Made by a program: the position numbers and the translations under genes. Shown piece after piece: positions 2,104 through 60,401 of a DNA stretch of 64,000 nt. The stretch's first letter is position 1. Every line of letters begins with the position of its first letter. Under the pieces are notes generated by a model. The model was given only the letters and a program-made list of their open reading frames with translations, was not told the DNA's origin and did no database searches. Source of the DNA: Prevotella sp. (GTDB lineage Bacteria; Bacteroidota; Bacteroidia; Bacteroidales; Bacteroidaceae); the NCBI GenBank assembly GCA_017462915.1, contig JAFTQG010000018.1, positions 31,338 to 95,337 of the forward strand, given 5' to 3'.

Positions 2104-2246
2104 GGTTCGGTTTTACGGTCTTACGGTTGGGCGGTTATACGGCTATTGCTTCTATATCGGCTATAAAGGCTATTCCGGCTATTGTAACCCTAACCCTAAC
2201 CCAAAACCACCAAACCACCAAACCACTAAACCACTAAACAACAAAA
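2104..2246. repeat. Composite intergenic repeat (8-mer/9-mer/8-mer)
   Basis: TACGGTT-type 8-mers at 2104-2145 pass into CTATATCGGCTAT-type 9-mers at 2150-2184. A short CCCTAA run at 2185-2203 follows, then CCAAACCA 8-mers that stop just before the start codon at 2255. It forms the 5' leader of the lyase mRNA. Confidence 0.8.
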
Positions 2247-3883: not shown

Positions 3884-3916
3884 CACCCTTGCAGCCGCTC
3901 CGCCGCATGACGGCGG

Positions 3917-3997
3917 AGGGTGACGGTAGACAGTGTGAAAGGTCACCTTTCACCATGCAGAAGGTAACGGTCTGCACGGTGAAGGGTGACCTTTCTT
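3917..3997. repeat. 22-bp GGTGACC repeat, four units
   Basis: TGAC, TCAC, TAAC and TGAC cores begin at 3921, 3943, 3965 and 3987, exactly 22 bp apart, each preceded by GNAAGG-like bases. It lies between the lyase and the convergent polyferredoxin gene. Confidence 0.8.
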
Positions 3998-4058
3998 TCG
4001 TTGGGGCTATACGGTCGGGACAGCCACAGCTGGCTGTCAAGCCGTGTCAGGCTCAGGC

Positions 4059-4844: not shown

Positions 4845-5026
4845 GTACGGTTGTGCGGTTGATGGCGGTTATACGGTTATGCGGTTATACGGTTGATGGC
4901 GGTTATACGGTTATACGGTTGTGCGGTTAAGGTCAAGGTGGATAGCCGCAATAGCCAGAATAGCCGGAATAGAAGCAATAGGATCTATAGAGGCTATATC
5001 GGCTATTCCGGCTATCCACCAAACCA
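4845..5026. repeat. Composite intergenic repeat
   Basis: About ten TRCGGTTR 8-mers (4845-4932) are followed by 9-mers ATAGCCGCA, ATAGCCAGA, ATAGCCGGA and their complements (4942-5016). Together these form an imperfect palindrome. The 4740-5415 gap has no gene; besides this element it holds a promoter, a hairpin and a heptamer array. Confidence 0.8.
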
Positions 5027-5183: not shown

Positions 5184-5330
5184 TTGAGGAAAACAGGACG
5201 CACGCCGCATCTCGCCGCAAGGGTAGGGACGCACCGCGGCACCTGCTTAGGCGGCGTGAGACGCCGATAGGTTGTTTAGTCGTTTGGTTGTTAGCCTTCT
5301 ATATCGGCTATTCCGGCTATATCGGCTATC

Positions 5331-5407
5331 ACTCATAACTCATAACTCATAACTCACAACTCACAACTCATAACTCACAACTCATAACTCACAACTCATA
5401 ACTCACA
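5331..5407 (+). repeat. Heptamer array ACTCAYA x 11
   Basis: Eleven head-to-tail 7-bp units (ACTCATA or ACTCACA) occupy 77 bp and end 8 bp before the methyltransferase ATG at 5416. There is no other ribosome-binding site, so the array is the translation-initiation region. Confidence 0.9.
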
Positions 5408-5415
5408 ACCCCAAA

Positions 5416-6342: not shown

Positions 6343-6424
6343 TGTGCGGTTTGGTGCGGTTATGCGGTTGTTCGGTTTTACGGTGATAGCCTGAATAGCC
6401 GATATAGCTTGAATAGAAAATATA
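6343..6424. repeat. Composite intergenic repeat, short
   Basis: TGCGGTTR 8-mers (6346-6384) followed by ATAGCCTGA, ATAGCCGAT and ATAGCTTGA 9-mers (6387-6415). It lies between the methyltransferase stop and the miaB promoter. Confidence 0.7.
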
Positions 6425-6524: not shown

Positions 6525-7874
6525 ATGAAGAAATTGTTTATCGAGACCTACGGTTGCCAGATGAATGTGGCAGACTCGGAGGTCGTCGCCAGCGTGATGG
6601 GCATGGCTGGCTATGAATTGTGTGAGTCGGCGGAGGACGCCGACGCTGTGTTCCTTAACACCTGCTCTGTCAGGGAGAATGCGGAGAACAAGGTGCTCCA
6701 CCGCCTTGACACCTTATATAATATGTACAGGAACAAGGGGAGGAAGGTCATTCTCGGTGTGCTCGGCTGTATGGCGGAGCGTATGAAGGCGGAGCTGATA
6801 GAGAAGCATCATGCCAGTCTTGTGGCAGGGCCTGACTCTTATCTCAGTCTTCCTGACCTCATAGCGCAGTGTGAACTGGGACACACGGCGATAGACACGG
6901 AGCTCTCCACGACGGAGACGTACAAGGATATCCTGCCGCAGCGCAGCCGCGGACAGCGTCTGTCGGGCTTCGTGAGCATCATGCGCGGCTGCAACAACTT
7001 CTGCCACTACTGCATAGTGCCTTACACGAGGGGCAGGGAGAGGAGCCGCGAGGTGGAGTCGATACTCAACGAGTGTCGTGACCTTCAGGAGCGCGGCTTC
7101 AAGGAGCTGACGCTCCTCGGGCAGAACGTGAACTCCTACTGTGCGGAGCAGGACGGCAGGGTGGTGGCTTTCCCGCAGCTTCTTGCCATGGTGGCCGAGG
7201 CTGTCCCGGGGATGCGTGTGCGCTTCACCACGTCTCACCCTAAGGACATGAGCGACGAGACGCTGGAGGTCGTGGCAAGGTATTCTAATGTCTGCAAGCA
7301 TATCCATCTGCCTGTGCAGTCGGGTTCGGACAAGATACTGAAGCTCATGAACCGCAAGTACACGCGTGAGTGGTATCTCGACAGGGTGAATGCCATCAGG
7401 CGCATAGTGCCGGAGTGTTCCATCACGACGGATATCTTCGTTGGCTATCACGACGAGATGGAGGAGGACCACCGCCAGAGCCTGTCGCTCATGAGGGAGG
7501 TGGGCTATGATTCTGCCTTCATGTTCAAGTATTCGGAGCGTCCGGGGACATACGCGAGCAAGCATCTCCCTGACAATGTCGCGGAGGAGGAGAAGATAAG
7601 GCGTCTTAACGAGATGATACGCTTGCAGACGGAGATTTCCGCCGAGCAGTACCGCAAGGATGTCGGCAAGACCTTCGAGGTGCTTATTGAGGGCTACAGC
7701 AAGCGTTCTCGCGAGCAGCTTTGTGGCCGCACGTCGCAGAACAAGATGGTTGTCTTCGACCGTATATATAAAAACGCCGAAGGCAAGGAGATAACCTTGC
7801 ACTCCGGCGAGTATGTCAATGTGCGTATAACCGACTCTTCAAGCGCTACGCTGAAAGGGGTTTTGGTGGTTTAG
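6525..7874 (+). CDS. miaB: tRNA-2-methylthio-N6-dimethylallyladenosine synthase MiaB
   Basis: A 449-aa radical-SAM methylthiotransferase that adds a methylthio group to i6A37 of tRNAs reading UNN codons. The N-terminal UPF0004 domain holds one cluster (C11, C47, C82). The radical-SAM motif GCNNFCHYC supplies C156, C160 and C163. The TRAM domain that binds tRNA is at the C-terminus (about 380-445, FEVLIEG, GRTSQNKMVVF). RGRERSRE and LLGQNVNSY are MiaB family signatures. Length is normal. It is monocistronic, with its own promoter and a repeat element after the stop. Confidence 0.97.
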   Translation: MKKLFIETYGCQMNVADSEVVASVMGMAGYELCESAEDADAVFLNTCSVRENAENKVLHRLDTLYNMYRNKGRKVILGVLGCMAERMKAELIEKHHASLVAGPDSYLSLPDLIAQCELGHTAIDTELSTTETYKDILPQRSRGQRLSGFVSIMRGCNNFCHYCIVPYTRGRERSREVESILNECRDLQERGFKELTLLGQNVNSYCAEQDGRVVAFPQLLAMVAEAVPGMRVRFTTSHPKDMSDETLEVVARYSNVCKHIHLPVQSGSDKILKLMNRKYTREWYLDRVNAIRRIVPECSITTDIFVGYHDEMEEDHRQSLSLMREVGYDSAFMFKYSERPGTYASKHLPDNVAEEEKIRRLNEMIRLQTEISAEQYRKDVGKTFEVLIEGYSKRSREQLCGRTSQNKMVVFDRIYKNAEGKEITLHSGEYVNVRITDSSSATLKGVLVV

Positions 7875-8048
7875 TGGTTTGGTCGTTTGGTGGTTTAGTC
7901 GTTTAGTGGTTTAGTGGTTTAGTGGTTTGGTGGTTGCAGGTTATAGCCGATATAGCCAGAATAGCCGAAATAGACTAATAACTAAATAACTAAACGACTA
8001 AACCACTAAACGACCAAACGACCAAACGACCAAACAACCAAACAACCA
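7862..8048. repeat. Composite intergenic repeat between convergent genes
   Basis: Nine G/T-rich TNGTTTRG 8-mers (7864-7937) start over the miaB stop codon. ATAGCCGAT, ATAGCCAGA and ATAGCCGAA 9-mers follow (7943-7970), then A/C-rich CYAAACSA 8-mers (7984-8048) up to the next stop. The two arms are mutually complementary, giving a very large imperfect hairpin shared by both transcripts. Confidence 0.85.
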
Positions 8049-8049
8049 A

Positions 8050-8778
8050 CTACTTCTTCGCTTCCTCCTGGCATTTCATCAGTGCCTCGAGGAAGCTTTT
8101 CTTTCCGCACAGGCGGGCGAAGCCTGCTCCTGCGCAGTGTCTTGCCGCCTCTACATCGCTCTGATAGTGGAAGCCGACGATTGTGCGGCTGTCGCCAAGC
8201 TCATGGCCTATGCGCATGATTTCCGTTCCTGCCTCGGGGAATACCGCTGTGAGAAGCATTGCCGCTGCCCAGGCACGGACAGTATGTCCTGAAGGGTAGG
8301 ATGTGTAGTCGGTAGGATACTCGTCTTCAGGGATGGGAGTGCCCTCCTTGAAATGCTGGTATGGACGATGGCGTGCGAAAGTGTTCTTGGCGTGCTGTAT
8401 TCCGCCGCGGACATCCTGCAACACACCTCTCAGTGTCTTTGCGAGGACAGGGTATTTCTCCTCCGTAAGTTCCTTGCCCACAGCCGGTGAGAAGCGTTTG
8501 AAATAGTAAGGTATGGAGGTGTTGACATCCATCACGGCAGTATCTCCGCGTGCTGTGAGGCGCAGCCGTTTGCCGCGCTCGTAGACGAGGCTGTCGTTTA
8601 TGAATGCCTCTGTGCCTGTCTCCGGCGGTGCCGGGAGATAGTAGAGGGCGTCGGGCATGTGGTCGCCTTCTTCCATGAATGTCACGCCGTATCCGTAGGC
8701 TTTCTTTGTATTGTTGTCCTGCGCCAGGCTTGGCATGGCGAGGAGAAGGAGGGATATTATAAGATAAGGTAGTTTCAT
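8050..8778 (-). CDS. Secreted class A acid phosphatase (PAP2 superfamily)
   Basis: A 242-aa periplasmic phosphatase of the PhoN type that hydrolyses phosphomonoesters non-specifically. A signal peptide (MKLPYLIISLLLLAMPSLAQ) ends at about residue 20. All three PAP2 motifs are intact: KNTFARHRP (K131-P139), PSGH (162-165, catalytic histidine), and GDSRTIVGFHYQSD (S197/R198, nucleophile H204, D208). Length is typical of the class. A/C-rich 8-mers directly precede the ATG on the coding strand. It is monocistronic, and it may scavenge phosphate from nucleotides or sugar phosphates. Confidence 0.92.
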   Translation of the reverse strand: MKLPYLIISLLLLAMPSLAQDNNTKKAYGYGVTFMEEGDHMPDALYYLPAPPETGTEAFINDSLVYERGKRLRLTARGDTAVMDVNTSIPYYFKRFSPAVGKELTEEKYPVLAKTLRGVLQDVRGGIQHAKNTFARHRPYQHFKEGTPIPEDEYPTDYTSYPSGHTVRAWAAAMLLTAVFPEAGTEIMRIGHELGDSRTIVGFHYQSDVEAARHCAGAGFARLCGKKSFLEALMKCQEEAKK

Positions 8779-9016
8779 TTTGGTGGTTTGGTTGTTTGGT
8801 GGTTTAGTGGTTTGGTTGTTTGGTTGTTTGGTTGTTTGGTGGTTTGGTTGTTTGGTGGTTTGGTGATTTGAGCTTCGCTCGAAGTCCCTTCCGCTCGGCA
8901 GAGCTCAAGCAAGCTTGGCTCTGCTCTCGCTTAAACGGGACTTTGGTGGTTTGGAGATAGCCGGAATAGCCGATATAGTCGGAATAGATGACTATCAACC
9001 AAACGACCAAACAACT
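8779..9016. repeat. Composite intergenic repeat with an extra hairpin insert
   Basis: G/T-rich 8-mers (8780-8868) and a 75-bp insert (8871-8945) are followed by 9-mers (8957-8984) and A/C-rich 8-mers (8994-9016). The insert starts GAGCTTCGCTCGAAG and contains GCAGAGC and GCTCTGC arms. It is flanked by AGTCCC and GGGACT, so it can fold as a cruciform by itself. No other copy was seen in the window. Confidence 0.75.
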
Positions 9017-10400
9017 ATATGCTGCTCTTTATAAGATTCATGAGTTTCTCCACAGCCTCTTCGGCAGGGATATTCTTCTGCACACATTCCTTCTGCTTGT
9101 AGAGGGAGACGCGTCCAGGACCTGCTCCGACATATCCGAAGTCGGCATCGGCCATTTCGCCCGGACCGTTGACGATGCATCCCATTATACCTATCTTCAG
9201 GGTCTTGAAGCGCACGTCGTGCTCCGCCTCGCTCATGACAGCTGCTTTGATGCGTGCTATTGTCGACTGGAGGTCGTACAGCGTGCGGCCGCAGCCCGGG
9301 CAGGAGATGAACTCCGGTTTTGTGAACCTTACTCTCGCCGCCTGCAATATGCTGTCGGCAAGAGCCTTGAGGTCGGTGTCAAGGGTCTCGGAGATGTTCT
9401 CTATGACAAGGTCTTTCGCCTTGCCGTCTATGAGGAGCGCGCCTGCCGACATTGCCGCTTTAAGCTGAAGGTCTTCGAGAAGATCCTCATGGAATGTCAG
9501 ATGCAGAGTGCCGTCGGAGATGATGGCATTCTCCCTTTTCTCAGCACACTCATTGACAGCGGCAACAAGTTTCATGGCGACAGGAATTTCATATTCAGGT
9601 TCTTCGGAGAGGCTTACGCGGATAGTGTCGCCGATGCCCTCCGTGAGGAGTGCTCCGATGCCCACGGCAGACTTTATCCTGCCGTCCTCGCCCTCGCCGG
9701 CTTCGGTGACGCCGAGATGCAGGGGATAGTGCATGTCTTCCTTGTCCATGGCCTCGACGAGGAGGCGCACGCTCTGTACCATGACGACGGTGTTGGACGC
9801 CTTGATGGAGATGACGACATCATCGAAATGCTCCCGGCGGCATATTCTCAGGAACTCCATGCACGACTCCACGATGCCTGCCGGAGTATCGCCGTAGCGC
9901 GACATGATGCGGTCGGACAGCGAACCGTGGTTTACGCCTATGCGCACGGCGGTATGGTGGTCGCGGCAGATATTGAGAAACGGCACTAACCGCTGCTCTA
10001 TCTTCCTGAGTTCCGCGGCATACTCCTCGTCGGTATACTCCAGTTGCTTGAAGGTTCTTGCCGGGTCAACATAGTTTCCGGGGTTTATGCGCACCTTCTC
10101 GCAGTACAGTGCCGCCGTGTCGGCGACATTGGCATTGAAATGCACGTCGGCGACGAGCGGTGTCGTGATGCCGTCCGCCTTGAGAGCCTTGGAGATATTG
10201 CGCATGTTCTCCGCCTCGCGGACGCCCTGTGTCGTCATGCGCACCAGTTCTCCGCCAGCAGAGATTATCCTTTTCGCCTGTTCCACGCAGGCCGTGGTGT
10301 CATTGGTGTTGACGGTCGTCATCGACTGCACACGGATAGGATTGTCTCCTCCTATGGCAGTGGTGCCGACATGTGTCACGCTGGTCTTTCTTCTTTCCAT
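9015..10400 (-). CDS. ispG: 4-hydroxy-3-methylbut-2-enyl diphosphate synthase IspG
   Basis: An iron-sulfur enzyme of the MEP isoprenoid pathway, converting methylerythritol cyclodiphosphate to HMBPP. I use ATG 10400 (461 aa); a GTG at 10406, three bases after the purE stop, is an alternative. The TIM-barrel half has VQSMT, LVADVHF and GVNHGSLSDR. The 4Fe-4S ligands are in CPGCGR (C367, C370) and GCIVNGPGE (C408). An insertion of about 80 residues separates the barrel from the cluster domain (about 285-360). It is longer than the E. coli arrangement but clearly shorter than the insert in most Bacteroidetes IspG proteins. It lies directly downstream of purE and is probably co-transcribed. Confidence 0.95.
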   Translation of the reverse strand: MERRKTSVTHVGTTAIGGDNPIRVQSMTTVNTNDTTACVEQAKRIISAGGELVRMTTQGVREAENMRNISKALKADGITTPLVADVHFNANVADTAALYCEKVRINPGNYVDPARTFKQLEYTDEEYAAELRKIEQRLVPFLNICRDHHTAVRIGVNHGSLSDRIMSRYGDTPAGIVESCMEFLRICRREHFDDVVISIKASNTVVMVQSVRLLVEAMDKEDMHYPLHLGVTEAGEGEDGRIKSAVGIGALLTEGIGDTIRVSLSEEPEYEIPVAMKLVAAVNECAEKRENAIISDGTLHLTFHEDLLEDLQLKAAMSAGALLIDGKAKDLVIENISETLDTDLKALADSILQAARVRFTKPEFISCPGCGRTLYDLQSTIARIKAAVMSEAEHDVRFKTLKIGIMGCIVNGPGEMADADFGYVGAGPGRVSLYKQKECVQKNIPAEEAVEKLMNLIKSSI

Positions 10401-10409
10401 GCTCACGTG

Positions 10410-10919
10410 TCAGTTTGTCTTGTATGTGTACTTCACTTCCGCGAGGTCGCGGTTTGCCTTCTCTATCTTCTCGCACAGCGAAGCCTTGTATGCCGCGAGC
10501 CTTTCAGCCACGGCGCTGTCTGTGAGGGCTATCATCTCCATGGCAAGGATAGCGGCGTTGAGAGAGGCATTGACGCCTACTGTGGCGACAGGGATGCCCG
10601 GCGGCATCTGGATGATGGAGTAGAGGGCGTCGACACCGTCGAGGACACTGCCCTTGATAGGTACGCCGATGACAGGGAGTGTGGTGGACGCTGCTATGAC
10701 TCCAGGCAGTGCGGCGGCCATTCCGGCGGCGGCGATGATTACTTTTATGCCGCGTGCGGCAGTGTTCTTCGCAAATTCTTCCACTGCATCGGGAGTGCGG
10801 TGTGCTGAAAGTGCATTGACTTCAAATGGTATCTGCTGCTCGTCAAGAAACTTCAGAGCTTTTTCCATTACCGGCAGGTCGCTTGTGCTGCCCATGATGA
10901 TTGATACTGAGGGATTCAT
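10410..10919 (-). CDS. purE: N5-carboxyaminoimidazole ribonucleotide mutase PurE
   Basis: A 169-aa cytosolic enzyme of de novo purine synthesis that rearranges N5-CAIR to CAIR. IIMGSTSDLPVM (residues 7-18) binds the ribonucleotide phosphate, SAHRTP (38-43) carries the catalytic histidine, and AAAGMAAALPG lines the active site. Size and motif order fit class I PurE. It is the first gene of a two-gene unit with ispG (9 bp between purE stop and the ispG ATG). A/C-rich 8-mers read into its start on the coding strand. Confidence 0.95.
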   Translation of the reverse strand: MNPSVSIIMGSTSDLPVMEKALKFLDEQQIPFEVNALSAHRTPDAVEEFAKNTAARGIKVIIAAAGMAAALPGVIAASTTLPVIGVPIKGSVLDGVDALYSIIQMPPGIPVATVGVNASLNAAILAMEMIALTDSAVAERLAAYKASLCEKIEKANRDLAEVKYTYKTN

Positions 10920-11045
10920 GTTGGTGGTTTGGTGGTTTAGTGGTTTGGTTGATTAGTGGTTTGGTTATTTGGTTGATAGCCGGAATAGTCGAAATAGAGG
11001 TCTGGCAACCAAACCACTAAACGACTAAACAACCAAACCACTAAA
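10920..11045. repeat. Composite intergenic repeat
   Basis: G/T 8-mers (10921-10976), ATAGCCGGA and ATAGTCGAA 9-mers (10977-11003), then A/C 8-mers (11008-11043). It lies between two minus-strand genes, so it is both the terminator region of one and the leader of the next. Confidence 0.8.
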
Positions 11046-11658
11046 TGATTATTACTGTGATGAATGTCGTGAAGAATCCTACGATGAAGCCTGTGCATAT
11101 CTCCGAGAGGGTATGCAGGCGCAGCAGCATACGTGCCGTGCCGAGGACTCCGGCGATTATTATCAGTGTCGAGAGCCACCATATGGCGTTGAAGCCGAAT
11201 ATGAACGAGAAGGCCGCGACACCGCCTGTCATTCCTCCTATCGCCGCCATGTGTGTGGAGACCTTCAGCCAGTTGTTGAGCAGGGCGCAGACGATCTGCA
11301 CGAAGAGTGCCGCCACGATGATGGCCGACATGAAATGCGGGAAGTGCAGCCATTTCATCGTATGGTAGCAGGCGAGGTATGACAGTATGGATATGATATA
11401 CGGTATCATGCGCTTCTCGCGCTTGCCGAGATGGTAGAGCGACCATCCGTGGTAACGGCGGTATGCGCGTATGAGTACCGTGGGGAGGAGTATCGTGAAG
11501 AAGTATGTGGAGACGATGACGTGCAGCTTGTACTGCCACGGCAGCAAGCTGAGGTAACTGAACGTGAAGAGGGCTATCATGCCCACGATGGGCAGATAGA
11601 AAGGGGTGAACAGCAGTGACAGCATACGTGCCACGGGTATGAGTTTCTTCTCGGACAT
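11041..11658 (-). CDS. Membrane protein, distant PAP2-like
   Basis: A 205-aa inner-membrane protein with about five or six transmembrane segments (roughly 12-34, 45-66, 85-100, 108-128, 138-160, 165-205). THMAAIGGMTGG (about 135-146) and LHTLSEICTGFIVG (about 179-192) sit where PAP2 lipid phosphatases carry PSGH and the HxxxxD motif. They keep only one histidine each, so activity is uncertain. It could be a degenerate lipid phosphatase or a structural relative. It is flanked by purE and rpoN without obvious functional link. Confidence 0.65.
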   Translation of the reverse strand: MSEKKLIPVARMLSLLFTPFYLPIVGMIALFTFSYLSLLPWQYKLHVIVSTYFFTILLPTVLIRAYRRYHGWSLYHLGKREKRMIPYIISILSYLACYHTMKWLHFPHFMSAIIVAALFVQIVCALLNNWLKVSTHMAAIGGMTGGVAAFSFIFGFNAIWWLSTLIIIAGVLGTARMLLRLHTLSEICTGFIVGFFTTFITVIII

Positions 11659-11847
11659 TTGGTTGTTTGGTTGTTCAGTTGTTTGGTTGTTTAGTGGTTT
11701 GGTTGTTTAGTGATTTGGTGGTTTAGTGATTTGGTGGTTTAGTTGTTTAGTTAATGGTGATAGCCGGAATAGCCGATATAGCAGGAATAGATGGCTGTCA
11801 ACCAAACGACTAAACCACCAAACAACTAAACGACCAAACCACTACCT
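11658..11847. repeat. Composite intergenic repeat
   Basis: Twelve G/T 8-mers (11659-11755), ATAGCCGGA, ATAGCCGAT, ATAGCAGGA 9-mers (11760-11788), A/C 8-mers (11796-11843). One of the longer, most regular copies. Confidence 0.85.
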
Positions 11848-11849
11848 CC

Positions 11850-13304
11850 TCATTTCCTCAGTCTTGCCACAGGGATGCCGAGCTGTTCGCGGTATTTGGC
11901 TATCGTGCGGCGTGCTATAGGGAAGCCCTTCTCCTTCATTATTGCCACGAGTTTCTCGTCAGAGAGCGGGTTTTTCTTGTCTTCATGCTCGATGACCTCC
12001 TTCAGGGCGGTCTTTATGACCTTTGTCGCCATGACCTCGCCCTCCTTTGTCTCGTAGCTTTCGGAGAAGAAGTGTCTGAGCGGAAAAGTGCCCCAAGGTG
12101 TCTGCACGTATTTCTCACGGCTGACGCGTGAGATGGTGGAGATGTCGAGCCCTGTGCGCTCCGCCACGTTTTTCAGCACCATGGGCCTTATGTCGTTCTC
12201 GTCTCCGCTGAGGAAATAAGGCCGTTGCAGCCTTATGATGGCATCCATGGCAGTCACGAGGGTGTTGTTGCGCTGTCTCAGAGCCTCTATGTAGCGCCGT
12301 GCGCTTTCCACATTGGCGCGTGTGAAGTCGAAGGCCTCCTTCTCCTTGCGGCTCATTCCCGTGCCGCTCATCTCGTTCAGAAATTCCTCGTCGTCCTTCA
12401 CGACATGCAGTTGCGGCACACGGCCGTTGTTCAGTTCGAAGGAGATATTGCCGTCATAGTCCACGTGTACGATGAAGTCGGGCGTGATCTGTTGCAGTGA
12501 GCGTCCCTGTGTCTCCCCGAAAGGAGCCCCGGGCTTGGGGTTGAGGCGGTGGCGTATCTCCCGGCGTATGTCTTCCGCCTGCTGTTCAGAGAGGTGCATC
12601 TGCCGGCATATCCGTTCCCAGCGGTTGTTGGAGAAGTCGTCGTAACATTCGTTTATGATGCGGTACATGAGCATCGTCTGCGGCGTTGCCGTCATCCTGC
12701 CCACCTGCACGAGGAGACACTCCTTGAGATTTCTTGTGCCTATGCCGGCAGGGTCAAACTCCTGTAGCTTCAGCAGGACATCCTCGATGTCGTCCGGTTC
12801 GACGAAGAGGTTCTCGTATATGGCAAGTTCGTCGGAGATAGTCTGCAGGTCCTTGCGCAGGAGTCCGTCGTCGTCGAGGGAGCAGATGAGGTATTCCATG
12901 ATCTGGTGTTCCTCTTCGGTGAGCTCCTCGAGGTTCATCTGTTCGTTGAGGGTGTCTATGAACGACACGGTATTCCCGTCCTCGACAGTCCTTTCCTCGC
13001 CGCCTCCCTGCACAGGCAGTCGGTCGTCCTTGCCCATGAGGTCGAGGGCGTCGTTGAGGGCGTCCTCCCTCCTCTCCTCCTCGTCGCTTTTCAGGGCTCT
13101 GTCGGTCTCTGGCTCTGCGGTTGCGGAGTCGTCGTAGTCGGGTTCGAGAGAGGGGTTGGTGTCCAGTTCGCGCAGCACATTATCCTCCAGTTGGGCGAGA
13201 GGCATCTCCAGCATCTTCACCACGAGTATCTGCTGTTCGGACAGATGCTGTTGCTGAAGCTGCCGCTGCTCTTGTCTCTGTATGGCGGAAAGGCTTTGTT
13301 TCAT
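11850..13304 (-). CDS. rpoN: RNA polymerase sigma-54 factor
   Basis: A 484-aa alternative sigma factor that recognises -24/-12 promoters and needs an AAA+ activator. The start at ATG 13304 (MKQSLSAIQRQ) begins the glutamine-rich region I; an extended frame to 13439 only translates repeat DNA. Region I is at 1-60 and an acidic region II at about 70-125. The core-binding domain is at about 130-270 and the HTH domain at about 330-400 (ISTISRVSREKYVQTPWG). The RpoN box is present at the C-terminus as ARRTIAKYREQLGIP. No sigma-54 activator is encoded in this window. An unknown conserved gene lies 125 bp upstream on the same strand. Confidence 0.96.
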   Translation of the reverse strand: MKQSLSAIQRQEQRQLQQQHLSEQQILVVKMLEMPLAQLEDNVLRELDTNPSLEPDYDDSATAEPETDRALKSDEEERREDALNDALDLMGKDDRLPVQGGGEERTVEDGNTVSFIDTLNEQMNLEELTEEEHQIMEYLICSLDDDGLLRKDLQTISDELAIYENLFVEPDDIEDVLLKLQEFDPAGIGTRNLKECLLVQVGRMTATPQTMLMYRIINECYDDFSNNRWERICRQMHLSEQQAEDIRREIRHRLNPKPGAPFGETQGRSLQQITPDFIVHVDYDGNISFELNNGRVPQLHVVKDDEEFLNEMSGTGMSRKEKEAFDFTRANVESARRYIEALRQRNNTLVTAMDAIIRLQRPYFLSGDENDIRPMVLKNVAERTGLDISTISRVSREKYVQTPWGTFPLRHFFSESYETKEGEVMATKVIKTALKEVIEHEDKKNPLSDEKLVAIMKEKGFPIARRTIAKYREQLGIPVARLRK

Positions 13305-13429
13305 TGTTGTATGGGGTTGTGCGGATATTATACGGTTGTGCGGTTGATAGCCGGAATAGCCGATATAGCCGGAATAGGAAGGACTGATGTCCGTATAACC
13401 GTATAACCGTATAAACCGTAACTCAGTCA
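13305..13429. repeat. Composite intergenic repeat (TACGGTT type)
   Basis: TRCGGTTG 8-mers (13318-13347), ATAGCCGGA, ATAGCCGAT, ATAGCCGGA 9-mers (13348-13378), then CCGTATAA 8-mers (13389-13424). The ACTGATGTCCGTATAACCG segment here recurs at 49338-49356, so whole elements appear to be copied. Confidence 0.8.
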
Positions 13430-14086
13430 TTATTTCCAATATACCTCCAACTGTCGTGCGAGATTGGAGAGAATCGTCGGGTCGTCATTTGCGTATCTGT
13501 ACCATATCTTCCTGCACGGCTCGAGCATAGGGTCACTGGACATGTCGGTGCTGTTGACGAACGGGTCGCAGTGGAGGTACAGCTGCAGGACGTAGACGAT
13601 GTCCTTCGCGCTCACGTCTATGAGGCGCGCCGTCTCTTTCACGTCGGGTGTCTCGGGCGTCATTGTCGCAGGGATGAGGCGGAAGTACAGGTCGAGTATC
13701 ATTATGAGCATCACCGGTGTGAACAGCGGACGCCCTGTCATCTGTGCCGTGGGGGCGTTGACGGGGCGGAAGTCGAGCTCGAATGTCTCGTTGACATCGA
13801 CATCGTCATAGAATTCGCTGGCGTTTCCCATGCCGCTGAGAGCCCTTAGCTTACTGCATGTCTGTGCAAGTCTCTTGGGGCTTCTCCCTATGGTGTCCAT
13901 GAGGTGGCTCAGCGATGGTGTCAGCTGTTGGCGGAGCAGGAACATCTTCTGGTAGATGACCTGCGGCGGTATGTGCAGCTCAAGGGCAAGCCTCACGCTG
14001 TCGCGCGAGTACATGGGCTTGATGCCTGCCGGCTTCTTCTGATACAGTTGTATCACGAGGGGCCAAAGTTCGTCTGTCCAAGGCAT
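13430..14086 (-). CDS. Conserved hypothetical protein upstream of rpoN
   Basis: A 218-aa soluble, mainly helical protein with no signal peptide or membrane segment and no motif I recognise. It starts MPWTDELWPLVIQLYQ and has an acidic middle (EFYDDVDVNETFELDF, about 92-107). A segment from about 142 to 170 (VKETARLIDVSAKDIVYVLQLYL) reads like a helix-turn-helix or protein-binding helix pair. Its position just upstream of rpoN, on the same strand, may mean co-transcription. Function is unknown. Confidence 0.75.
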   Translation of the reverse strand: MPWTDELWPLVIQLYQKKPAGIKPMYSRDSVRLALELHIPPQVIYQKMFLLRQQLTPSLSHLMDTIGRSPKRLAQTCSKLRALSGMGNASEFYDDVDVNETFELDFRPVNAPTAQMTGRPLFTPVMLIMILDLYFRLIPATMTPETPDVKETARLIDVSAKDIVYVLQLYLHCDPFVNSTDMSSDPMLEPCRKIWYRYANDDPTILSNLARQLEVYWK

Positions 14087-14095
14087 GGGGATGGG

Positions 14096-14262
14096 TGGTT
14101 TTTTGGTGATTTTGTTGTTTAGTTGTTTAGTCGTTTGGTTATTTGTTTATGGTTGTGGGTTCGGGTTGCGATAGCCTGAATAGCCGATACAGTAGTAATA
14201 GGTGAAAACTATCAACTAAACCACTAAACGACTACACAGCCAAACCACTAAATCCGAGGGCA
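14096..14262. repeat. Composite intergenic repeat
   Basis: G/T 8-mers (14097-14150), 9-mers ATAGCCTGA, ATAGCCGAT (14171-14190), A/C 8-mers (14215-14250). The right end runs over the end of the sufE gene. Confidence 0.7.
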
Positions 14263-14654: not shown

Positions 14655-14745
14655 TTGGTTGTCTGGTGGTTTAGTGATTTTGTTGTTTGGTTGTTGGTTT
14701 TTGTTTTATAGCCGGAATAGCCGATATAGCCGGAATAGGATAACG
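14655..14745. repeat. Composite intergenic repeat
   Basis: G/T 8-mers (14655-14705) and ATAGCCGGA, ATAGCCGAT, ATAGCCGGA 9-mers (14709-14738), without a right A/C arm. A 22-bp repeat follows directly, then a second composite element. Confidence 0.75.
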
Positions 14746-14768
14746 GCTGCTGATTATCAATGCTTTAC

Positions 14769-14845
14769 AGAGGTGACCTTTTGCTTGGCGGAAGGTGACC
14801 TTTTGTCAGGTGAACAGTGACCTTTTATCCTGCTGACCATGACAC
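14769..14845. repeat. 22-bp GGTGACC repeat, four units
   Basis: TGAC cores at 14774, 14796, 14818 and 14840, exactly 22 bp apart. The first two are full GGTGACC followed by TTTTGC or TTTTGT. Confidence 0.8.
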
Positions 14846-14847
14846 TT

Positions 14848-14960
14848 GGGTTGGTTGTTTGGTTGTTTAGTGGTTTAGTGGTTTTGTTGTTTGGTTAATA
14901 GCTGAAATAGAGACTAACAACCAAATAACTAAACGACCAAACCACTAAACCACTAAATCC
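14848..14960. repeat. Composite intergenic repeat
   Basis: G/T 8-mers (14850-14898), a minimal 9-mer core (ATAGCTGAAATAG at 14899-14911), and A/C 8-mers (14918-14957) ending at the U32 stop. Confidence 0.75.
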
Positions 14961-16224: not shown

Positions 16225-16228
16225 AGTG

Positions 16229-16262
16229 CAAAGATAATATTTTTAATCGGAAATGGAAAAGA
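16229..16262 (-). promoter_or_regulatory. Promoter of the U32 gene
   Basis: TATCTTTG on the minus strand at 16236-16229, with TTTTCC-like bases about 20 bp upstream. The box ends 5 bp before the start codon, implying a leaderless or nearly leaderless mRNA. Confidence 0.6.
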
Positions 16263-16292
16263 ATAGTTCTTAAAAAATCCATTACGGCGTGA

Positions 16293-16326
16293 TTTTTTGC
16301 CGAGGGCGGATAATCTCCCGGCAAAT
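16293..16326 (-). terminator. Terminator after fic
   Basis: On the minus strand ATTTGCCGGGA pairs with CCTCGGCAAA, followed by a T/A-rich tail. It lies about 70 bp past the fic stop. Confidence 0.6.
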
Positions 16327-16397
16327 GCCTTCTGTTTCGGTGTGGCAATACCCTTCGCAGGCCTTGATGTCAGATACTTTACCGCCACTTACTTATA

Positions 16398-17526: not shown

Positions 17527-17584
17527 GATAGCCGGAATAGCCGATATAGCCTCTATAGCTTCTATATCGGCTATTCCGGCTATC
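17527..17584. repeat. Perfect palindromic form of the 9-mer repeat
   Basis: Two 23-bp arms (17527-17549 and 17562-17584) are exact complements around a 12-nt loop. The left arm is GATAGCCGGAATAGCC followed by GATATAG. It is the cleanest copy of the 9-mer core and has almost no 8-mer arms. The 17286-17832 gap holds only this element, the fic operator, the palindrome cluster and the LytTR leader. Confidence 0.9.
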
Positions 17585-24300: not shown

Positions 24301-24416
24301 TGTGGTGGTTGTATACGGTTATGCGGTTGGGCGGTGATAGCCTGAATAGCCGATATAGCCGGAATAGAAGCTATAGAGGCTATAATATTTATAGAGGCTA
24401 ATTCCGTCTGTCACGG
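24301..24416. repeat. Composite intergenic repeat
   Basis: Short 8-mer arm TATACGGTTATGCGG (24310-24328), then ATAGCCTGA, ATAGCCGAT, ATAGCCGGA, ATAGAAGCT, ATAGAGGCT 9-mers (24336-24381). The right side is degenerate and reaches the next stop. Confidence 0.75.
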
Positions 24417-25454: not shown

Positions 25455-25566
25455 TGTTGTTTAGTGGTTTGGTCGTTTAGTGGTTTGGTTATGTGTTTTT
25501 GTGGTTTTGCCGCGCTGCATATAGCCAAACGACCAAACCACTAAACGACCAAACCACCAACCTCCT
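25455..25566. repeat. 8-mer repeat without 9-mer core
   Basis: G/T 8-mers (25455-25500) and A/C 8-mers (25528-25563) flank an unrelated 27-bp centre, where other copies carry ATAGCC units. Confidence 0.7.
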
Positions 25567-27070: not shown

Positions 27071-27100
27071 GTCTTTATATGATGCGTTTTGTTTGAATTT

Positions 27101-27176: not shown

Positions 27177-27193
27177 ATATAAAACATCTGTTT

Positions 27194-28118: not shown

Positions 28119-28172
28119 TATAATGTAGGCATCCGTCTGCACAGGCTGTGCCGCATGACGCCTGCCGTCCCG

Positions 28173-28256: not shown

Positions 28257-28280
28257 GAGACGGAAAGCCCCTTGCGGTCT

Positions 28281-28395
28281 CAGTCTATATAGTCATAATA
28301 GCCGTTATAGCCGGAATAGAAGCTATAGAGGCTATATCGGCTATTCCGGCTATCAACTCTAAACCACCAAACCACTAAACCACCAAACAACCACC
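28281..28395. repeat. Composite intergenic repeat before cysS
   Basis: 9-mers ATAGTCATA, ATAGCCGTT, ATAGCCGGA, ATAGAAGCT, ATAGAGGCT, ATATCGGCT, ATTCCGGCT (28290-28352) form a palindrome. A/C 8-mers (28359-28393) then lead directly into the cysS start. Confidence 0.85.
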
Positions 28396-29883: not shown

Positions 29884-29885
29884 TA

Positions 29886-30069
29886 AGGCAGAAACGGTAG
29901 CCGTAATAGCCATTATAGTCTTGATAATCTCTATAGTCTTGATAATATCTATAGTCTTTATAGCCTCTATAATTCCTATAGTTTCTATTCCGGCTATATC
30001 GGCTATTCCGGCTATCTCCATAAAACCCCACAACCCACAACCTACAACCCAAAACCCAAAAACCACCAA
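29886..30069. repeat. Long 9-mer repeat tract before the SDR gene
   Basis: About 13 consecutive 9-mers drift from ATAGCCGTA through ATAGTCTTG and ATATCTATA types to ATTCCGGCT (29898-30015), followed by ACAACCC/AAAACCC units (30025-30066). It is the longest uninterrupted 9-mer array in the window. Confidence 0.8.
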
Positions 30070-30882: not shown

Positions 30883-30886
30883 ATGA

Positions 30887-31143
30887 TTGGTGGTTTGGTG
30901 GTTTAGTTATTAGTCTATTCTGGCTATATCGGCTATTCCGGCTATCCTCTCAAATAACCAAATAACCAAATAACCAAACCACCAAATAACCAAACCACCA
31001 AATAACCAAACCACCAAATAACCAAACCACCAAATAACCAAACCACCAAATAACCAAACCACTAAACCACCAAACCACCAAACCACCAAACCACCAAACC
31101 ACCAAACCACCAAACCACCAAACCACTAAACAACTAAACCACT
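30887..31143. repeat. Composite intergenic repeat with a long A/C array
   Basis: A short G/T arm (30887-30908) and a 9-mer core (30913-30946) are followed by about 24 consecutive A/C 8-mers (30951-31143), alternating AAATAACC and AAACCACC before AAACCACT. It ends exactly at the uxuA start codon. It is the largest 8-mer array here, over 190 bp. Confidence 0.9.
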
Positions 31144-32424: not shown

Positions 32425-32575
32425 GGTGCGGTTTTACGGTTTTACGGTTAGGCGGTTGTGCGGTTTTACGGAAATCAGTCCTGCATATTCCGGCTATATC
32501 GGCTATTCCGGCTATAACCTACAACCTACAACCTACAACCTACAACCCCAAAACCTCAAAACCGTACACAACAAA
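32425..32575. repeat. Composite intergenic repeat with ACCTACA heptamers
   Basis: TACGGTT 8-mers (32428-32472), a 9-mer core (32487-32516), then four ACCTACA heptamers (32518-32546) instead of the usual CCAAACCA units. Confidence 0.8.
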
Positions 32576-35631: not shown

Positions 35632-35700
35632 GATAGCCGGAATAGCCGGAATAGAATCTATAGAGACTATATCGGCTATTCCGGCTATCACCTAAAACCA
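35632..35700. repeat. 9-mer palindromic repeat
   Basis: ATAGCCGGA, ATAGCCGGA, ATAGAATCT, ATAGAGACT, ATATCGGCT, ATTCCGGCT (35634-35687) form a near-perfect palindrome with almost no 8-mer arms. It sits between divergent genes, away from either start. Confidence 0.85.
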
Positions 35701-35818: not shown

Positions 35819-37090
35819 ATGGCAATAGCAAGAAATATATTGCGTCAAGTGTTGCTTGACAATCAGAGGGACATCGAGCAATATGACATATTCCGGCGAG
35901 ATTATGACCTCAGTTCCTTTCCCCTGCAGGTGTTTGTCGGCGTGAGACGTTCCGGGAAGTCCTTCCTGCTGTTCCAGAAGATACGCCAGATGCTTGCTGA
36001 AGGACATGGCTGGGAAGACATGCTCTATCTTGATTTTGAAGACCAGAGGCTTGAAGGCTTCACGGCAGACGACTTCAACCTTATCCTGGAGTGTCATCAG
36101 GAGATGTACGGCAAGCGTCCTATGCTGTTTCTTGATGAGATACAGAACATTGACGGCTGGCAGAAGTTCGCACGTAATCTGGCAGACAGGAAATACAGCG
36201 TCTTCATTACAGGAAGCAATGCCAGTATGCTTTCCAAGGACATCATGTCTGCCCTTGGCGGACGGTATATCCCTGTTGAGGTGTATCCCTTCAGCTTCAC
36301 AGAATATCTCGACTTCCTTGCCATCCCGCATGACGACATGGCTCTTGATGCCACCGAGTCAAGGGCGCGGTTCATGAAGGCATACAACGACTATCTCGCA
36401 TGGGGCGGACTGCCCGAATCCATCAGTCTGCCCGTCAGGCGTCCATATCTCTCCAGTGTGTTCCAGAAGATATATCTCGGCGATATAGCACAGCGTAACG
36501 GTGTCTCAAACCCCAGACTGCTGCAGCTGCTGAGCAAGAAGATAGCCGAGAGCATCATGCAACCCATATCGTACAACCGTATGGCAAAGGTCCTTTCCAC
36601 GATAGCAGGAAAGGTGAGTGTACCGACAGTCTCAAACTATGTCGGCTATTCAGAGGATGCGTGGCTGTTGCTGCGTGTGAGAAACATTGTCTCGGCTTTT
36701 GCCGAGAAAGAGAGCGTATGCAAGTATTACTACATAGACAACGGTCTGCTGTCGATACAGCTGCTGGACATAGACACACTCCTTCTGGAGAATGCCGTCG
36801 CCCTTTCCCTTTTCCGCAGATACGGGCATGATACGGACAACGAGCGCGTCTACTTCTATAATGCCAATGTAGAGGTAGATTTCTATGTGCCGGAAGATGA
36901 ACTTGCTGTACAGGTTTCTTACTCCTTGGCGGACGAGAAGACAAGGAAGCGCGAAGTGGAAGCTCTTGGCAAGTTTCCTAAGATCTATCCGTGCAAGCAT
37001 CGTGTTATAGTCACATACGATGAGGAAGGCACGATAACAGACAAATATGGTGTCATAGAAATTGTGCCATGCTGGAGATGGATGGTTTAG
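35819..37090 (+). CDS. AAA family ATPase with DUF4143 domain
   Basis: A 423-aa cytosolic ATPase of the AAA_14/DUF4143 family. Walker A is GVRRSGKS (about 41-48), Walker B is MLFLDEIQN (about 101-109), and a sensor threonine/serine segment is FITGSNA. The winged-helix region and DUF4143 nuclease-like domain follow from about 200 (VYFYNANVEVDFYVP, about 342-356, has the D-x-D/E type residues). Such proteins are widespread in Bacteroidetes, often horizontally moved, with no established role. It is transcribed opposite to the flanking cassettes. Confidence 0.88.
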   Translation: MAIARNILRQVLLDNQRDIEQYDIFRRDYDLSSFPLQVFVGVRRSGKSFLLFQKIRQMLAEGHGWEDMLYLDFEDQRLEGFTADDFNLILECHQEMYGKRPMLFLDEIQNIDGWQKFARNLADRKYSVFITGSNASMLSKDIMSALGGRYIPVEVYPFSFTEYLDFLAIPHDDMALDATESRARFMKAYNDYLAWGGLPESISLPVRRPYLSSVFQKIYLGDIAQRNGVSNPRLLQLLSKKIAESIMQPISYNRMAKVLSTIAGKVSVPTVSNYVGYSEDAWLLLRVRNIVSAFAEKESVCKYYYIDNGLLSIQLLDIDTLLLENAVALSLFRRYGHDTDNERVYFYNANVEVDFYVPEDELAVQVSYSLADEKTRKREVEALGKFPKIYPCKHRVIVTYDEEGTITDKYGVIEIVPCWRWMV

Positions 37091-37235
37091 TGTTTTGGTT
37101 GTTTGGTTGTTTAGTTGTTTAGTCGTTTAGTGTTTTGGTCGTTTAGTTGTTTAGTGTTTTGGTTGTTTGGTTGTTTAGTTTCTATTCCGGCTATATCGGC
37201 TATTCCGGCTATCACCTATCACCTACAACCCCACA
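37087..37235. repeat. Composite intergenic repeat
   Basis: About ten G/T 8-mers (37087-37178) start over the ATPase stop, followed by a half 9-mer core (37182-37213) and CACCTAT units. Confidence 0.8.
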
Positions 37236-43666: not shown

Positions 43667-43675
43667 GGTATTTAT

Positions 43676-43768
43676 TGTAGGTTGTGCGGTTGTACGGTTA
43701 TTATTTTAGGTTTTTATAGCCGGAATAGCCAAAATAGCCGGAATGGCCGAAATGGCAGATATGGAGGT
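43676..43768. repeat. 9-mer repeat with short 8-mer arm
   Basis: GTACGGTT-like units (43680-43701), then ATAGCCGGA, ATAGCCAAA, ATAGCCGGA, ATGGCCGAA, ATGGCAGAT (43717-43761). The 43667-44757 gap holds this element, a 22-bp repeat, other degenerate 9-mers (43971-44005, 44238-44275) and a MITE; I see no gene there. Confidence 0.75.
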
Positions 43769-46449: not shown

Positions 46450-46600
46450 TGTTGTTTTGTTGTTTAGTTTTTTTTGTTGTTTAGTTGAGCTGAGGATAGC
46501 CGGAATAGCCGATATAGCCGGAATAGGATAACGGCAATAGCCGATATAGCCATTATAGCCGTAATAGAGGCAATAGCCATTATGGCCGGGATAGTGGCTG
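46450..46600. repeat. Composite intergenic repeat inside the rha cluster
   Basis: G/T 8-mers (46452-46485), then ATAGCCGGA, ATAGCCGAT, ATAGCCGGA, ATAGGATAA, then CGGCAATAGCC-type 9-mers to 46591. It separates rhaD from the transporter within one transcript direction. Confidence 0.75.
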
Positions 46601-46611
46601 GGCTACCTTAT

Positions 46612-49223: not shown

Positions 49224-49261
49224 TTTGTCAGTAGTTTTTTTTAGTTAATGTTATTTAGTTT

Positions 49262-49378
49262 TTGTTTGTTTCTGTAGTTTTTTTATAGGGGATAGCCGGA
49301 ATAGCCGATATAGCCGGAATAGCCGGAATAGGCAGAACTGATGTCCGTATAACCGCCTAACCGTAAAAACCGCCCGTC
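49262..49378. repeat. Composite intergenic repeat inside the rha cluster
   Basis: A degenerate T-rich left arm, ATAGCCGGA, ATAGCCGAT, ATAGCCGGA, ATAGCCGGA 9-mers (49292-49330), then CCGTATAA/CCGCCTAA 8-mers (49348-49374). Confidence 0.8.
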
Positions 49379-50861: not shown

Positions 50862-50868
50862 GGTTGTC

Positions 50869-50990
50869 TGGTTAGTTGTTTGGTCGTTTGGTCGTTTAGG
50901 GGTTAGGGGTGTCAGGTTTTAGGTTGATAGCCGTTACAGGCCGGAATAGCCATTATAGCAGGAATAGCCGTAATAGCTGTTATAGGCCGC
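50869..50990. repeat. Composite intergenic repeat
   Basis: G/T 8-mers (50870-50925), then degenerate 9-mers ATAGCCGTT, ATAGCCATT, ATAGCAGGA, ATAGCCGTA, ATAGCTGTT (50928-50985). It sits in the leader of rhaB. Confidence 0.75.
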
Positions 50991-52628: not shown

Positions 52629-52745
52629 TCAGAGGATAGCCGGGATAGCCGATATAGCCGTGATAGAAGCTATAGAGACTATCCTGGCTATTTTGGCTAT
52701 ATCGGCTATTCCGGCTATCAACCTAAAACCTAAAACCTAACACCC
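52629..52745. repeat. 9-mer palindromic repeat with heptamer tail
   Basis: ATAGCCGGG, ATAGCCGAT, ATAGCCGTG, ATAGAAGCT, ATAGAGACT, then the complementary units to 52717; ACCTAAA heptamers follow (52724-52744). Confidence 0.85.
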
Positions 52746-52764
52746 CAAACCCTTCTCCAAAAAA

Positions 52765-60259: not shown

Positions 60260-60267
60260 CCTTCAGG

Positions 60268-60365
60268 ATAATGATAGCCGGAATAGCTGAAATAGCCGCA
60301 ATAGATACTATAGCCTCTATAGCTTCTATTATGGCTATCCCGGCTATCTTGGCTATTCCTACTAT
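60268..60365. repeat. 9-mer palindromic repeat within the pectinase cluster
   Basis: ATAGCCGGA, ATAGCTGAA, ATAGCCGCA, ATAGATACT, ATAGCCTCT, ATAGCTTCT, then complementary units to 60356. It separates the second and third enzymes. Confidence 0.8.
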
Positions 60366-60401
60366 AATATCTATCAAATCAAACTAAATCAACTGACCGA
60401 A

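What the first reader, a model, noticed from the sequence alone, without database searches (positions are those of the whole stretch)
7862..8048. Intergenic DNA built from exact-period 8- and 9-mer repeats
In at least 25 gaps I read the same composite: G/T-rich 8-mers (TNGTTTRG, or TRCGGTTR), then 9-mers (ATAGCCGNN) that often fold on themselves, then A/C-rich 8-mers. On the plus strand the order is always G/T, core, A/C, so the whole unit is one large imperfect palindrome whichever way the flanking genes point. As a result A/C-rich unstructured DNA precedes most start codons and G/T-rich DNA follows most stops. This gap is a clear copy; others are at 11658, 14848, 28281, 30887, 37087 and 46450. 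I know of no described element of this design. It could act as a bidirectional terminator, as an mRNA-end protector or as a translation leader.
Basis: seen in the sequence. Interest (0 to 1): 0.8.

Follow-up and report, generated by a model that had tools for sequence, protein, structure and literature searches.

The report
Fast-changing repeat hairpins between genes
In a gut bacterium related to Prevotella, most spacers between genes are hairpins made of short tandem repeats that sit against stop and start codons, and a sister species often has the same kind of hairpin at the same place built from different repeats, so the shape and position appear to be kept while the sequence is replaced.

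Summary
25 gaps of the window carry G/T-rich 8-mers (GTTTRGTN, TRCGGTTN), 9-mers (ATAGCCGNN) and A/C-rich 6- to 8-mers; shuffles give none. In 464 kb of this genome 126 of 221 gaps carry an element, and 0 of 341 class I matches lie inside genes. Corrections: the G/T-left, A/C-right order holds in 49 of 55 gaps with class I, not always. The 9-mer core is oriented with transcription (59 co-directional gaps with it, 5 against, 9 both). The arms share one theme: GGTT-N2-4 after stops, AACC-N2-4 before starts. The decisive result is comparative. In the closest sister (CysS 99% identical) repeat-free gaps are conserved (median identity 0.93); repeat gaps mostly keep an element but lose the sequence (0.50). 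Of 10 fully typed gaps 7 changed repeat class, five on both arms; in the sister, arm classes match in 18 of 20 gaps. I read them as RNA hairpins in leaders, between cistrons and at gene ends, where the A/C leader and coarse pairing are kept and the letters turn over. No function was measured. Neutral turnover is nearly as likely. A terminator is unlikely. I found no published description of this composite.

The parts
7862..7935 (+). left arm, class I 8-mers GTTTRGTN (G/T-rich after the stop of miaB; first 13 nt inside the ORF)
   Evidence: TRF; pattern
7942..7973 (+). 9-mer core ATAGCCGNN, 3.6 copies
   Evidence: TRF
7977..8049 (-). right arm, class I 8-mers read as NACYAAAC on + (G/T-rich after the stop of the - strand gene)
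   Evidence: pattern
6525..7874 (+). miaB; its stop TAG (7872-7874) is part of the first repeat units
   Evidence: TIGR01574, 470.9 bits
8050..8778 (-). acid phosphatase PhoC-like gene
   Evidence: NF045654, 143.3 bits, below the curated cut-off of 430
2108..2246 (+). 5'UTR copy: class II G/T arm, core, A/C arm directly downstream of a TATCTTTG promoter-like site
   Evidence: promoter-like site seen in the sequence
4846..5015 (.). class II G/T arm plus double core
5270..5415 (+). probable 5'UTR copy: G/T arm, core, 7-mer A/C arm, about 90 nt after a promoter-like site
6343..6424 (+). class II arm and core after a stop
8779..9014 (-). class I/I element interrupted by another palindromic insert
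10896..11040 (-). class I/I element between a gene and purE
11659..11849 (-). class I/I element downstream of rpoN; class II/II in sister G084
13224..13429 (-). class II element upstream of rpoN
14087..14231 (-). class I/I element after the sufE-like gene; class I/I also in G084
14655..14952 (-). two elements flanking a 22-mer repeat
17528..17583 (.). double core
24301..24416 (-). class II arm and core
25455..25564 (-). class I/I element; class II in G084
28281..28395 (+). double core and A/C leader of cysS
29884..30069 (+). core and 7-mer A/C leader of uxuB-like gene; class I/I in G084
30883..31143 (+). class I/I element between uxuB-like gene and uxuA; 7-mers on both arms in G084
32425..32563 (.). 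class II arm, core, 7-mer arm, convergent gap
35633..35688 (.). double core, divergent gap
37085..37225 (.). class I arm (starts in the ORF end), core, 7-mers, convergent gap
43675..43764 (-). class II arm and core
46450..46611 (-). element between MFS transporter and rhamnulose-1-phosphate aldolase genes
49224..49376 (-). element between rhamnulokinase and L-rhamnose isomerase genes
50862..50985 (-). 5'UTR copy of the rhamnulokinase gene, downstream of a promoter-like site conserved in G424
52634..52751 (+). double core and 7-mer A/C arm
60260..60401 (+). double core before a + gene, weak A/C leader

Best explanation
Each gap element is a transcribed hairpin module. After a stop codon comes an array of GGTT-N2-4 units (class I GTTTRGTN, class II TRCGGTTN, 7-mers such as GGGTTNT). 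Then comes a chain of 9-mers in which neighbouring CCGG boxes can pair. Then comes an array of AACC-N2-4 units ending a few bases before the next start codon. In the mRNA the two arrays pair coarsely, so the stem begins at the stop codon and closes about 15 nt before the start codon. I propose that selection acts on the A/C-rich, AACC-bearing leader and on coarse pairing, not on any unit sequence: the leader keeps the start codon clear of other starts and structure, and the stem separates and protects neighbouring cistrons, perhaps letting a terminating ribosome reach the next start. The repeat sequence itself is replaced quickly by slippage and by copying between gaps. Shown by computation: anatomy, place, polarity, orientation of the core, class matching of the arms, slots that mostly keep an element while its sequence is replaced. 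Inferred: transcription through the element, the RNA fold, any effect on translation or stability, and the copying mechanism.
For: Arms abut genes: median 10 nt from stops (22 and 40 arms) and 16-17 nt from starts (41 and 26 arms). Stops before class I trailers are TAG in 29 of 47 cases against 39 of 225 genes with neither a class I nor a class II trailer (p 3e-9). Core orientation follows transcription: 59 gaps with it, 5 against, 9 both in G000; 23 with and 4 against in sister G084. Arm classes match: G000 41 of 52 gaps (shuffled 29.1), G084 18 of 20 (7.3), G381 7 of 8 (2.9). RNA z-scores: mean -7.1 for the first 30 two-arm gaps under 260 nt, -2.2 for the first 30 without arms. In 21 of 49 two-arm gaps the stem closes within 15 nt of both stop and start, against 6 of 50 gaps without arms. 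AACC per 60-nt leader: 2.49 in G000, 1.63 in G084, 2.47 in G424, which has few arrays; GGTT in these leaders 0.03-0.06. Two full copies (2108-2246, 5270-5415) lie downstream of a promoter-like site, one directly and one about 90 nt after, where no upstream gene explains the G/T arm. Slots and turnover.
Against: Within class I pairs, true partners pair no better than swapped ones (-34.0 against -34.2 kcal/mol, 30 gaps), so there is no unit-by-unit covariation. A murE-ftsZ-type cluster (L021) has an element in 1 of 9 gaps and a stretch with rplM-rpsI-rpsB-tsf-like genes (L028) in 0 of 7, so operons do not need them. If the stem forms, the A/C leader is paired, which sits badly with an open leader. 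Elements also occur in convergent gaps (12 of 23), where there is no start codon. The excess of leader-only over trailer-only gaps depends on the arm caller: 28 to 10 but 24 to 14 (p 0.14; 22 to 12 in G084, p 0.12). The sister sample is small (10 gaps typed on both arms in both species). Own-versus-swapped arm pairing was not significant in five small samples. No RNA or protein data.
Confidence: 0.4

Rival explanations
1. Mostly neutral, self-propagating repeats. Slippage and ectopic copying fill any gap that carries no promoter or other constrained sequence; inverted copying inside a hairpin gives the second arm; polarity follows from the palindromic layout alone.
For: Repeat gaps turn over wholesale (median identity 0.50, 2 of 39 with the same length) while repeat-free gaps stay fixed (0.93, 20 of 23). 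Elements are rare in a murE-ftsZ-type cluster (1 of 9 gaps) and absent beside rplM-rpsI-rpsB-tsf-like genes (0 of 7). No fine covariation between arms. Class I units are patchy in the genus (66 of 398 genomes).
Against: Core orientation follows transcription (59 gaps against 5), which symmetric neutral insertion does not predict. AACC leaders persist in G424 with few arrays. Slots are mostly kept: 28 of 39 repeat gaps have typed arms in both species.
Confidence: 0.35
2. A/C arms are Rho-loading (rut-like) sites: C-rich, G-poor RNA at the entrance of genes from either side, ending transcripts that are not translated at once, including antisense read-through.
For: Largest (C-G)/60 excess reading into genes: median 0.30 in sense and 0.17 in antisense for gaps with arms, 0.10 and 0.07 without. 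[quoted passage not shown] It explains why only composition and position, not sequence, would be kept.
Against: Where both arms exist the G/T arm is made first and would mask the A/C arm. No Rho was found in this genome, though the gene is cut by a contig end in G084 and may be lost in an assembly gap. The YC spacing of 9-13 nt used in PMC9160355 is wider than 6-8.
Confidence: 0.1
3. Bidirectional intrinsic terminator (one of the first reader's options).
For: At the convergent gap 7875-8049 the relative G424 has an ordinary stem-loop with T-tail where G000 and G084 have repeat hairpins. Two of 11 terminator-like sites in 7700-16500 lie in element gaps.
Against: Elements lie between cistrons of probable operons. 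T6 runs are no commoner in element gaps (13 of 101 against 12 of 77). In 7700-16500 the 11 terminator-like sites compare with 8.8 expected.
Confidence: 0.07
4. A mobile palindromic element of the REP/BIME or MITE kind moved by a transposase.
For: Dispersed near-identical core (101 exact, partly overlapping copies of ATAGCCGGAATAGCCG in the genome).
Against: Arm number and class vary from place to place; many arrays run directly up to stop and start codons; the sister often carries another class at the same slot. No transposase was looked for.
Confidence: 0.08

Closest known systems
TAACTGA heptamer repeats of Beggiatoaceae, cyanobacteria and some Bacteroidetes (MacGregor 2015, PMC4679880; abstract and passages read)
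   Same: Intergenic tandem short units, mostly just upstream of starts in one orientation; one set in Flexibacter litoralis lies reversed right after a stop; the unit can be read AACT-N3, like the AACY-N2-4 leaders here.
GGGAATC/GGGGAYT heptamers of Xanthomonas and Nostoc (Rehm 2015, PMC4692102; abstract and passages read)
   Same: Intergenic; the majority lie between the same genes in two related species with extensive length and sequence variation; some inverted repeats.
   Different: G-rich heptamer of G-quadruplex type; no composite with leader and trailer arms in the passages read.
Long simple sequence repeats of 5-11 nt (Mrazek 2007; as cited in PMC4679880, not read)
   Same: General kind: tandem units of this length in prokaryote genomes.
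   Different: No composite architecture mentioned in the citing text.
REP elements (PMC3733652, start of abstract in the listing)
   Same: High-copy intergenic palindromes proposed for termination, mRNA stability and supercoiling.
   Different: 20-40 bp single palindromes with a conserved tag; here about 100-260 nt built of tandem arrays.
Minisatellite within a MITE of Porphyromonas gingivalis (PMC4596501, start of abstract in the listing, not read)
   Same: A Bacteroidales element that combines tandem repeats with inverted repeats.
   Different: Described as a transposable element; no comparison of sequence was made here.

Membership tests
intergenic short tandem repeats (LSSR, heptamer repeats) | tandem units of 5-11 nt, mainly between genes | tested here: met
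   units of 7, 8 and 9 nt; 0 of 341 class I and 0 of 167 core matches in genes, 8 of 142 class II
TAACTGA repeats | unit TAACTGA | tested here: not met
   units found are GTTTRGTN, TRCGGTTN, ATAGCCGNN and 7-mers such as AACCCAC and AACTCAT; TAACTGA is not among the TRF units
TAACTGA repeats | one orientation upstream of starts | tested here: met
   AACC per 60-nt leader 2.49 against GGTT 0.03 in G000
REP/BIME | 20-40 bp palindrome with conserved tag sequence | tested here: not met
   elements are arrays of roughly 100-260 nt with varying copy number
REP/BIME | associated REP-linked transposase (RAYT) | not tested
   no search made
intrinsic terminator | GC-rich stem followed by a T-tract | tested here: not met
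   13 of 101 against 12 of 77 gene ends with T6; 11 sites against 8.8 expected in 7700-16500, two of them in element gaps
described RNA family (Rfam 15) | match above gathering score | tested here: not met
   0 matches in the window
Rho utilisation site | C-rich, G-poor RNA stretch | tested here: met
Rho utilisation site | Rho present and acting there | tested here: inconclusive
   no rho found in G000, present in G084, G424, G422, G423; assembly gap possible

The most novel reading that the evidence does not exclude
A genome-wide, sequence-independent punctuation system: hairpins whose base joins the stop codon of one cistron to the start codon of the next, so that post-termination ribosomes or subunits are handed across the spacer. 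Only pairing, polarity and A/C leader composition are selected, while the units (6-, 7-, 8-mers; 9-mer core) are exchanged gap by gap, usually on both arms together, between sister species, and related species use another core (TGTCA/TGACA 9-mers in Palleniella) for the same slot.
Probability: 0.15. Interest if true: 0.85.

Novelty: new variant of a known kind. Interest (0 to 1): 0.66.

Why it matters
Intergenic spacers of bacteria are usually read as either conserved regulatory DNA or unconstrained filler. Here place, layout and pairing class seem to be kept while the letters are replaced within the time that proteins diverge by a few percent. If the hairpins act on translation or mRNA half-life, expression of hundreds of genes is tuned by DNA that mutates by slippage, and alignments of intergenic DNA would miss it. 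If they do not, they are an unusually clean case of neutral repeat turnover confined to permissive gaps. Either answer is testable with two strains and RNA data.

Tried and rejected
The exact 16-mer core was found in none of 59 relatives (G084 was not among them); a looser core was found in G084 (20 matches) and once in G159, among 11 other genomes. Unit-by-unit covariation inside class I: none. Promoter content as the factor that separates element gaps from others: no association in co-directional gaps of 90-900 nt (13 of 102 element gaps and 9 of 52 others have a promoter-like site, p 0.47). A link between loss of Rho and the repeats: rejected as a general rule, since G084, G328 and G381 carry both. 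Rfam: nothing. Paper searches for a described element gave no match in the listings; subscription journals are mostly not held, and papers such as PMC8040213 and PMC4596501 were seen only as listings. Own-versus-swapped arm pairing was not significant in the G381, G328, G424, Palleniella and G425 samples of 8-25 gaps. I did not test for a transposase or for target-site duplications, and did not search class I in the whole G424 genome.

Arm classes come from regular-expression callers that disagree on some weak arms, e.g. the G084 side of 25455-25564 (II/II, II/none). Match counts overlap within arrays, so per-gap counts were added. L033 and G381 are probably the same genome (identical counts 93/89), so they are not independent.

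On checking the draft against the calls I mended: the statement that the murE-ftsZ-type cluster lacks elements (it has one), the wording on the second 5'UTR copy, the right-arm start, the stop-codon comparison group, and the list of loci with the MITE-like insert.

Full report
What is there. The window lies in an unnamed 2.93 Mb genome. Of the genome-contig hits to one window protein, the nearest are Palleniella muris and P. intestinalis (83%) and a MAG, isolate NALB_7861_17 (85%), handled here as G422, G423 and G424; I infer Prevotellaceae from these and the further hits. The focal gap 7875-8049 lies between miaB (+) and a PhoC-like phosphatase gene (-). It holds 9.2 copies of an 8-mer GTTTRGTN, 3.6 copies of ATAGCCGNN and about seven full copies of NACYAAAC. 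Both strands fold into one long stem (z -13 and -14). The pattern counts of 59 and 31 in the window have shuffled expectations of 0. In the window 23 of 33 gaps of 60-900 nt carry an element by my criterion, plus two gaps outside that size or at the window start; in the whole 464 kb sample 126 of 221.

Position and polarity. In the window plus 400 kb of stretches, 0 of 341 class I (4 at gene edges), 0 of 167 core and 8 of 142 class II matches fall inside called genes (genes by my own hexamer caller, without an outside annotation). By gap, class I reads G/T on the left and A/C on the right in 49 gaps, the opposite in 3, mixed in 3. This rule is the same as 'G/T after stops, A/C before starts', because all four gene arrangements give it. 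The core breaks the symmetry: of 169 co-directional gaps, 59 have it only with CTATNCCGG on the coding strand, 5 only the other way and 9 both ways (96 none); in the sister G084, with a looser pattern, 23 and 4 of 144. By match the figures are 104 of 119, and with the looser pattern 209 of 255 and 32 of 36. The arrays abut genes: median distance to stops 10 nt, to starts 16-17 nt. Before class I trailers the stop is TAG in 29 of 47 cases, in register with the repeat in many, against 39 of 225 genes with neither class I nor class II trailer.

One theme under several units. Leaders consist of AAC(C/T) followed by 2-4 other bases: 6-mers AACCCT/AACCTT, 7-mers AACCCAC/AACCTAA/AACTCAT, 8-mers AACCGTAT and AACNACYA. 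Trailers are the complement, GGTT-N2-4. AACC per 60-nt leader is 2.49 in G000, 1.63 in G084, 1.72 in G381, 2.47 in G424 and 0.81 in the two Palleniella species together, with GGTT in the same leaders at 0.03-0.06; the small G425 and G328 samples (8 and 13 gaps; AACC 0.12 and 0.38) do not show it. G424 has 11 class II matches in the whole genome and no array in the 23 kb locus L031 except one inside a gene; class I was not searched in its whole genome. The leader composition therefore looks more general than the arrays.

Sister comparison. CysS identity ranks G084 first of the 29 other genomes compared (99%), then G424 and the two Palleniella genomes (95%), then G425 (89%) and G021, G328, G381 (83%). 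I compared 62 orthologous gaps between the own sample and 472 kb of G084. 23 repeat-free gaps have median identity 0.93 and 20 keep their length within 3 nt. 39 repeat gaps have median identity 0.50 and 2 keep their length. Typed arms are present in both species in 28 of these 39, only in G000 in 8, only in G084 in 2, in neither in 1. Ten gaps have both arms typed in both species; seven changed class, in five both arms changed, for example 7875-8049 (I/I to 7-mer/7-mer), 11659-11849 (I/I to II/II) and 30883-31143 (I/I to 7-mer/7-mer). Three stayed I/I. Two changed on one arm. Some start-proximal bases are kept while the distal array differs (L018 6206, L023 6953, L020 12335). Divergent promoter gaps such as 27071-27193 are nearly identical by eye, and five repeat-free divergent gaps have identities of 0.93-1.00.

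Other species fill the slot otherwise. At four window gaps (14655, 25455, 29884, 30883) both Palleniella genomes have 9-mers of another sequence, TGTCA or TGACA about every 9 nt; at 29884 and 30883 these lead into an A/C-rich leader. A pattern for three such units has 100 matches in G422 and 178 in G423, counting both strands (the pattern is nearly its own complement, so many places count twice), and 0 in G000, G084, G424, G425, G381 and G328. G381 gaps have G/T and A/C arms without a 9-mer core. At the convergent focal gap G424 has an ordinary stem-loop with T-tail. Class I 17-mers occur in 66 of 398 genus genomes, most in G000 (816), G328 (574) and G381 (519).

Pairing. The two arms of a gap share a class more often than chance: 41 of 53 in G000 by one arm caller (shuffled 29.3), 41 of 52 by another (29.1), 18 of 20 in G084 (7.3) and 7 of 8 in G381 (2.9). 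Stop-proximal and start-proximal 40-mers pair better with each other than with those of other gaps in G000 (137 gaps, p 9e-5) and G084 (115 gaps, p 5e-3), but not detectably in five smaller samples. Inside class I there is no finer matching. Gaps with both arms fold far below shuffles (mean z -7.1 for the first 30 gaps under 260 nt, -2.2 for 30 without arms). In predicted structures the outermost cross-gap pair starts at the stop (median -1) and ends 15 nt before the start (45 of 49 two-arm gaps have such a pair; it is within 15 nt of both codons in 21 of 49, against 2 of 23 leader-only, 2 of 9 trailer-only and 6 of 50 armless gaps).

Operons. Rhamnulokinase, L-rhamnose isomerase, an MFS transporter and rhamnulose-1-phosphate aldolase genes follow each other on the - strand with a promoter-like site conserved in G424 upstream of the first. 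Elements lie in its 5'UTR and in two of the three spacers; the third is 5 nt. That these genes form an operon in Bacteroides is recalled, not from a call. The D-mannonate oxidoreductase gene and uxuA have a long A/C arm between them. A chain of eight genes from the U32 peptidase gene to phoC has an element in every spacer but the 9-nt one. A murE-ftsZ-type cluster has an element in 1 of 9 gaps, absent in G084, and a stretch with rplM-rpsI-rpsB-tsf-like genes in 0 of 7; those names are my reading of the translations, not from a family search.

Reading. A device that must terminate would not sit inside these transcription units, and T-runs are not enriched. What is kept is mostly the slot, the polarity, the A/C leader, the orientation of the core and coarse pairing; what is not kept is sequence. 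I therefore prefer an RNA-level leader and intercistronic hairpin with rapid turnover (0.4), with neutral turnover in permissive gaps close behind (0.35). The review PMC12548453 (abstract and passages) describes unfolding and scanning models of translational coupling and says coupling is most efficient at small intergenic distance; in one screen that it cites, structure right after the upstream stop correlated negatively with coupling, which speaks against the hand-over idea.

Known kinds. Intergenic short tandem repeats are known (PMC4679880, PMC4692102; abstract and passages), including arrays before starts and turnover between related species. The composite with matched arms, an oriented 9-mer core and joint class switching was not found in the listings of the paper searches. 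I file it as a new variant of a known kind.

Noticed in passing
own genome G000: No transcription terminator Rho was found in this 99.97% complete genome by a family model or a relative's protein, although 362 of 398 genus genomes match. In sister G084 the gene is cut by a contig end, so an assembly gap is possible.
   Followed up: partly
window 3884-4058, 14760-14830, 28150-28260, 43838-43888, 52771-52821: A second repeat family of about 22-nt period around AAAGGTNACCTTT; similar repeats were seen by eye in G084 (L141), G424 (L031) and both Palleniella loci (L029, L030).
   Followed up: no
G084 gaps in L143, L203, L204, L215, L216, L218, L219; a related piece in window 5200-5270: A palindromic insert of about 200 bp (TAGGGACGTACC ... 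GGCGTTTCACGCC) sits in repeat gaps of G084, MITE-like.
   Followed up: no
window 8870-8950; L023 5933-6172: Another palindromic insert (GAGCTTCGCTCGAAGT...) sits inside class I elements; in L023 it is shared between G000 and G084.
   Followed up: no
relatives L041, L052, L054, L056, L074 and others: Many Prevotella-group loci carry intergenic tandem repeats of 7-11 nt with their own units, in several gaps as inverted pairs.
   Followed up: partly
G000 leaders, e.g. L018 4106-4269; window 2185-2202: Telomere-like 6-mers TAACCC occur inside leaders.
   Followed up: no
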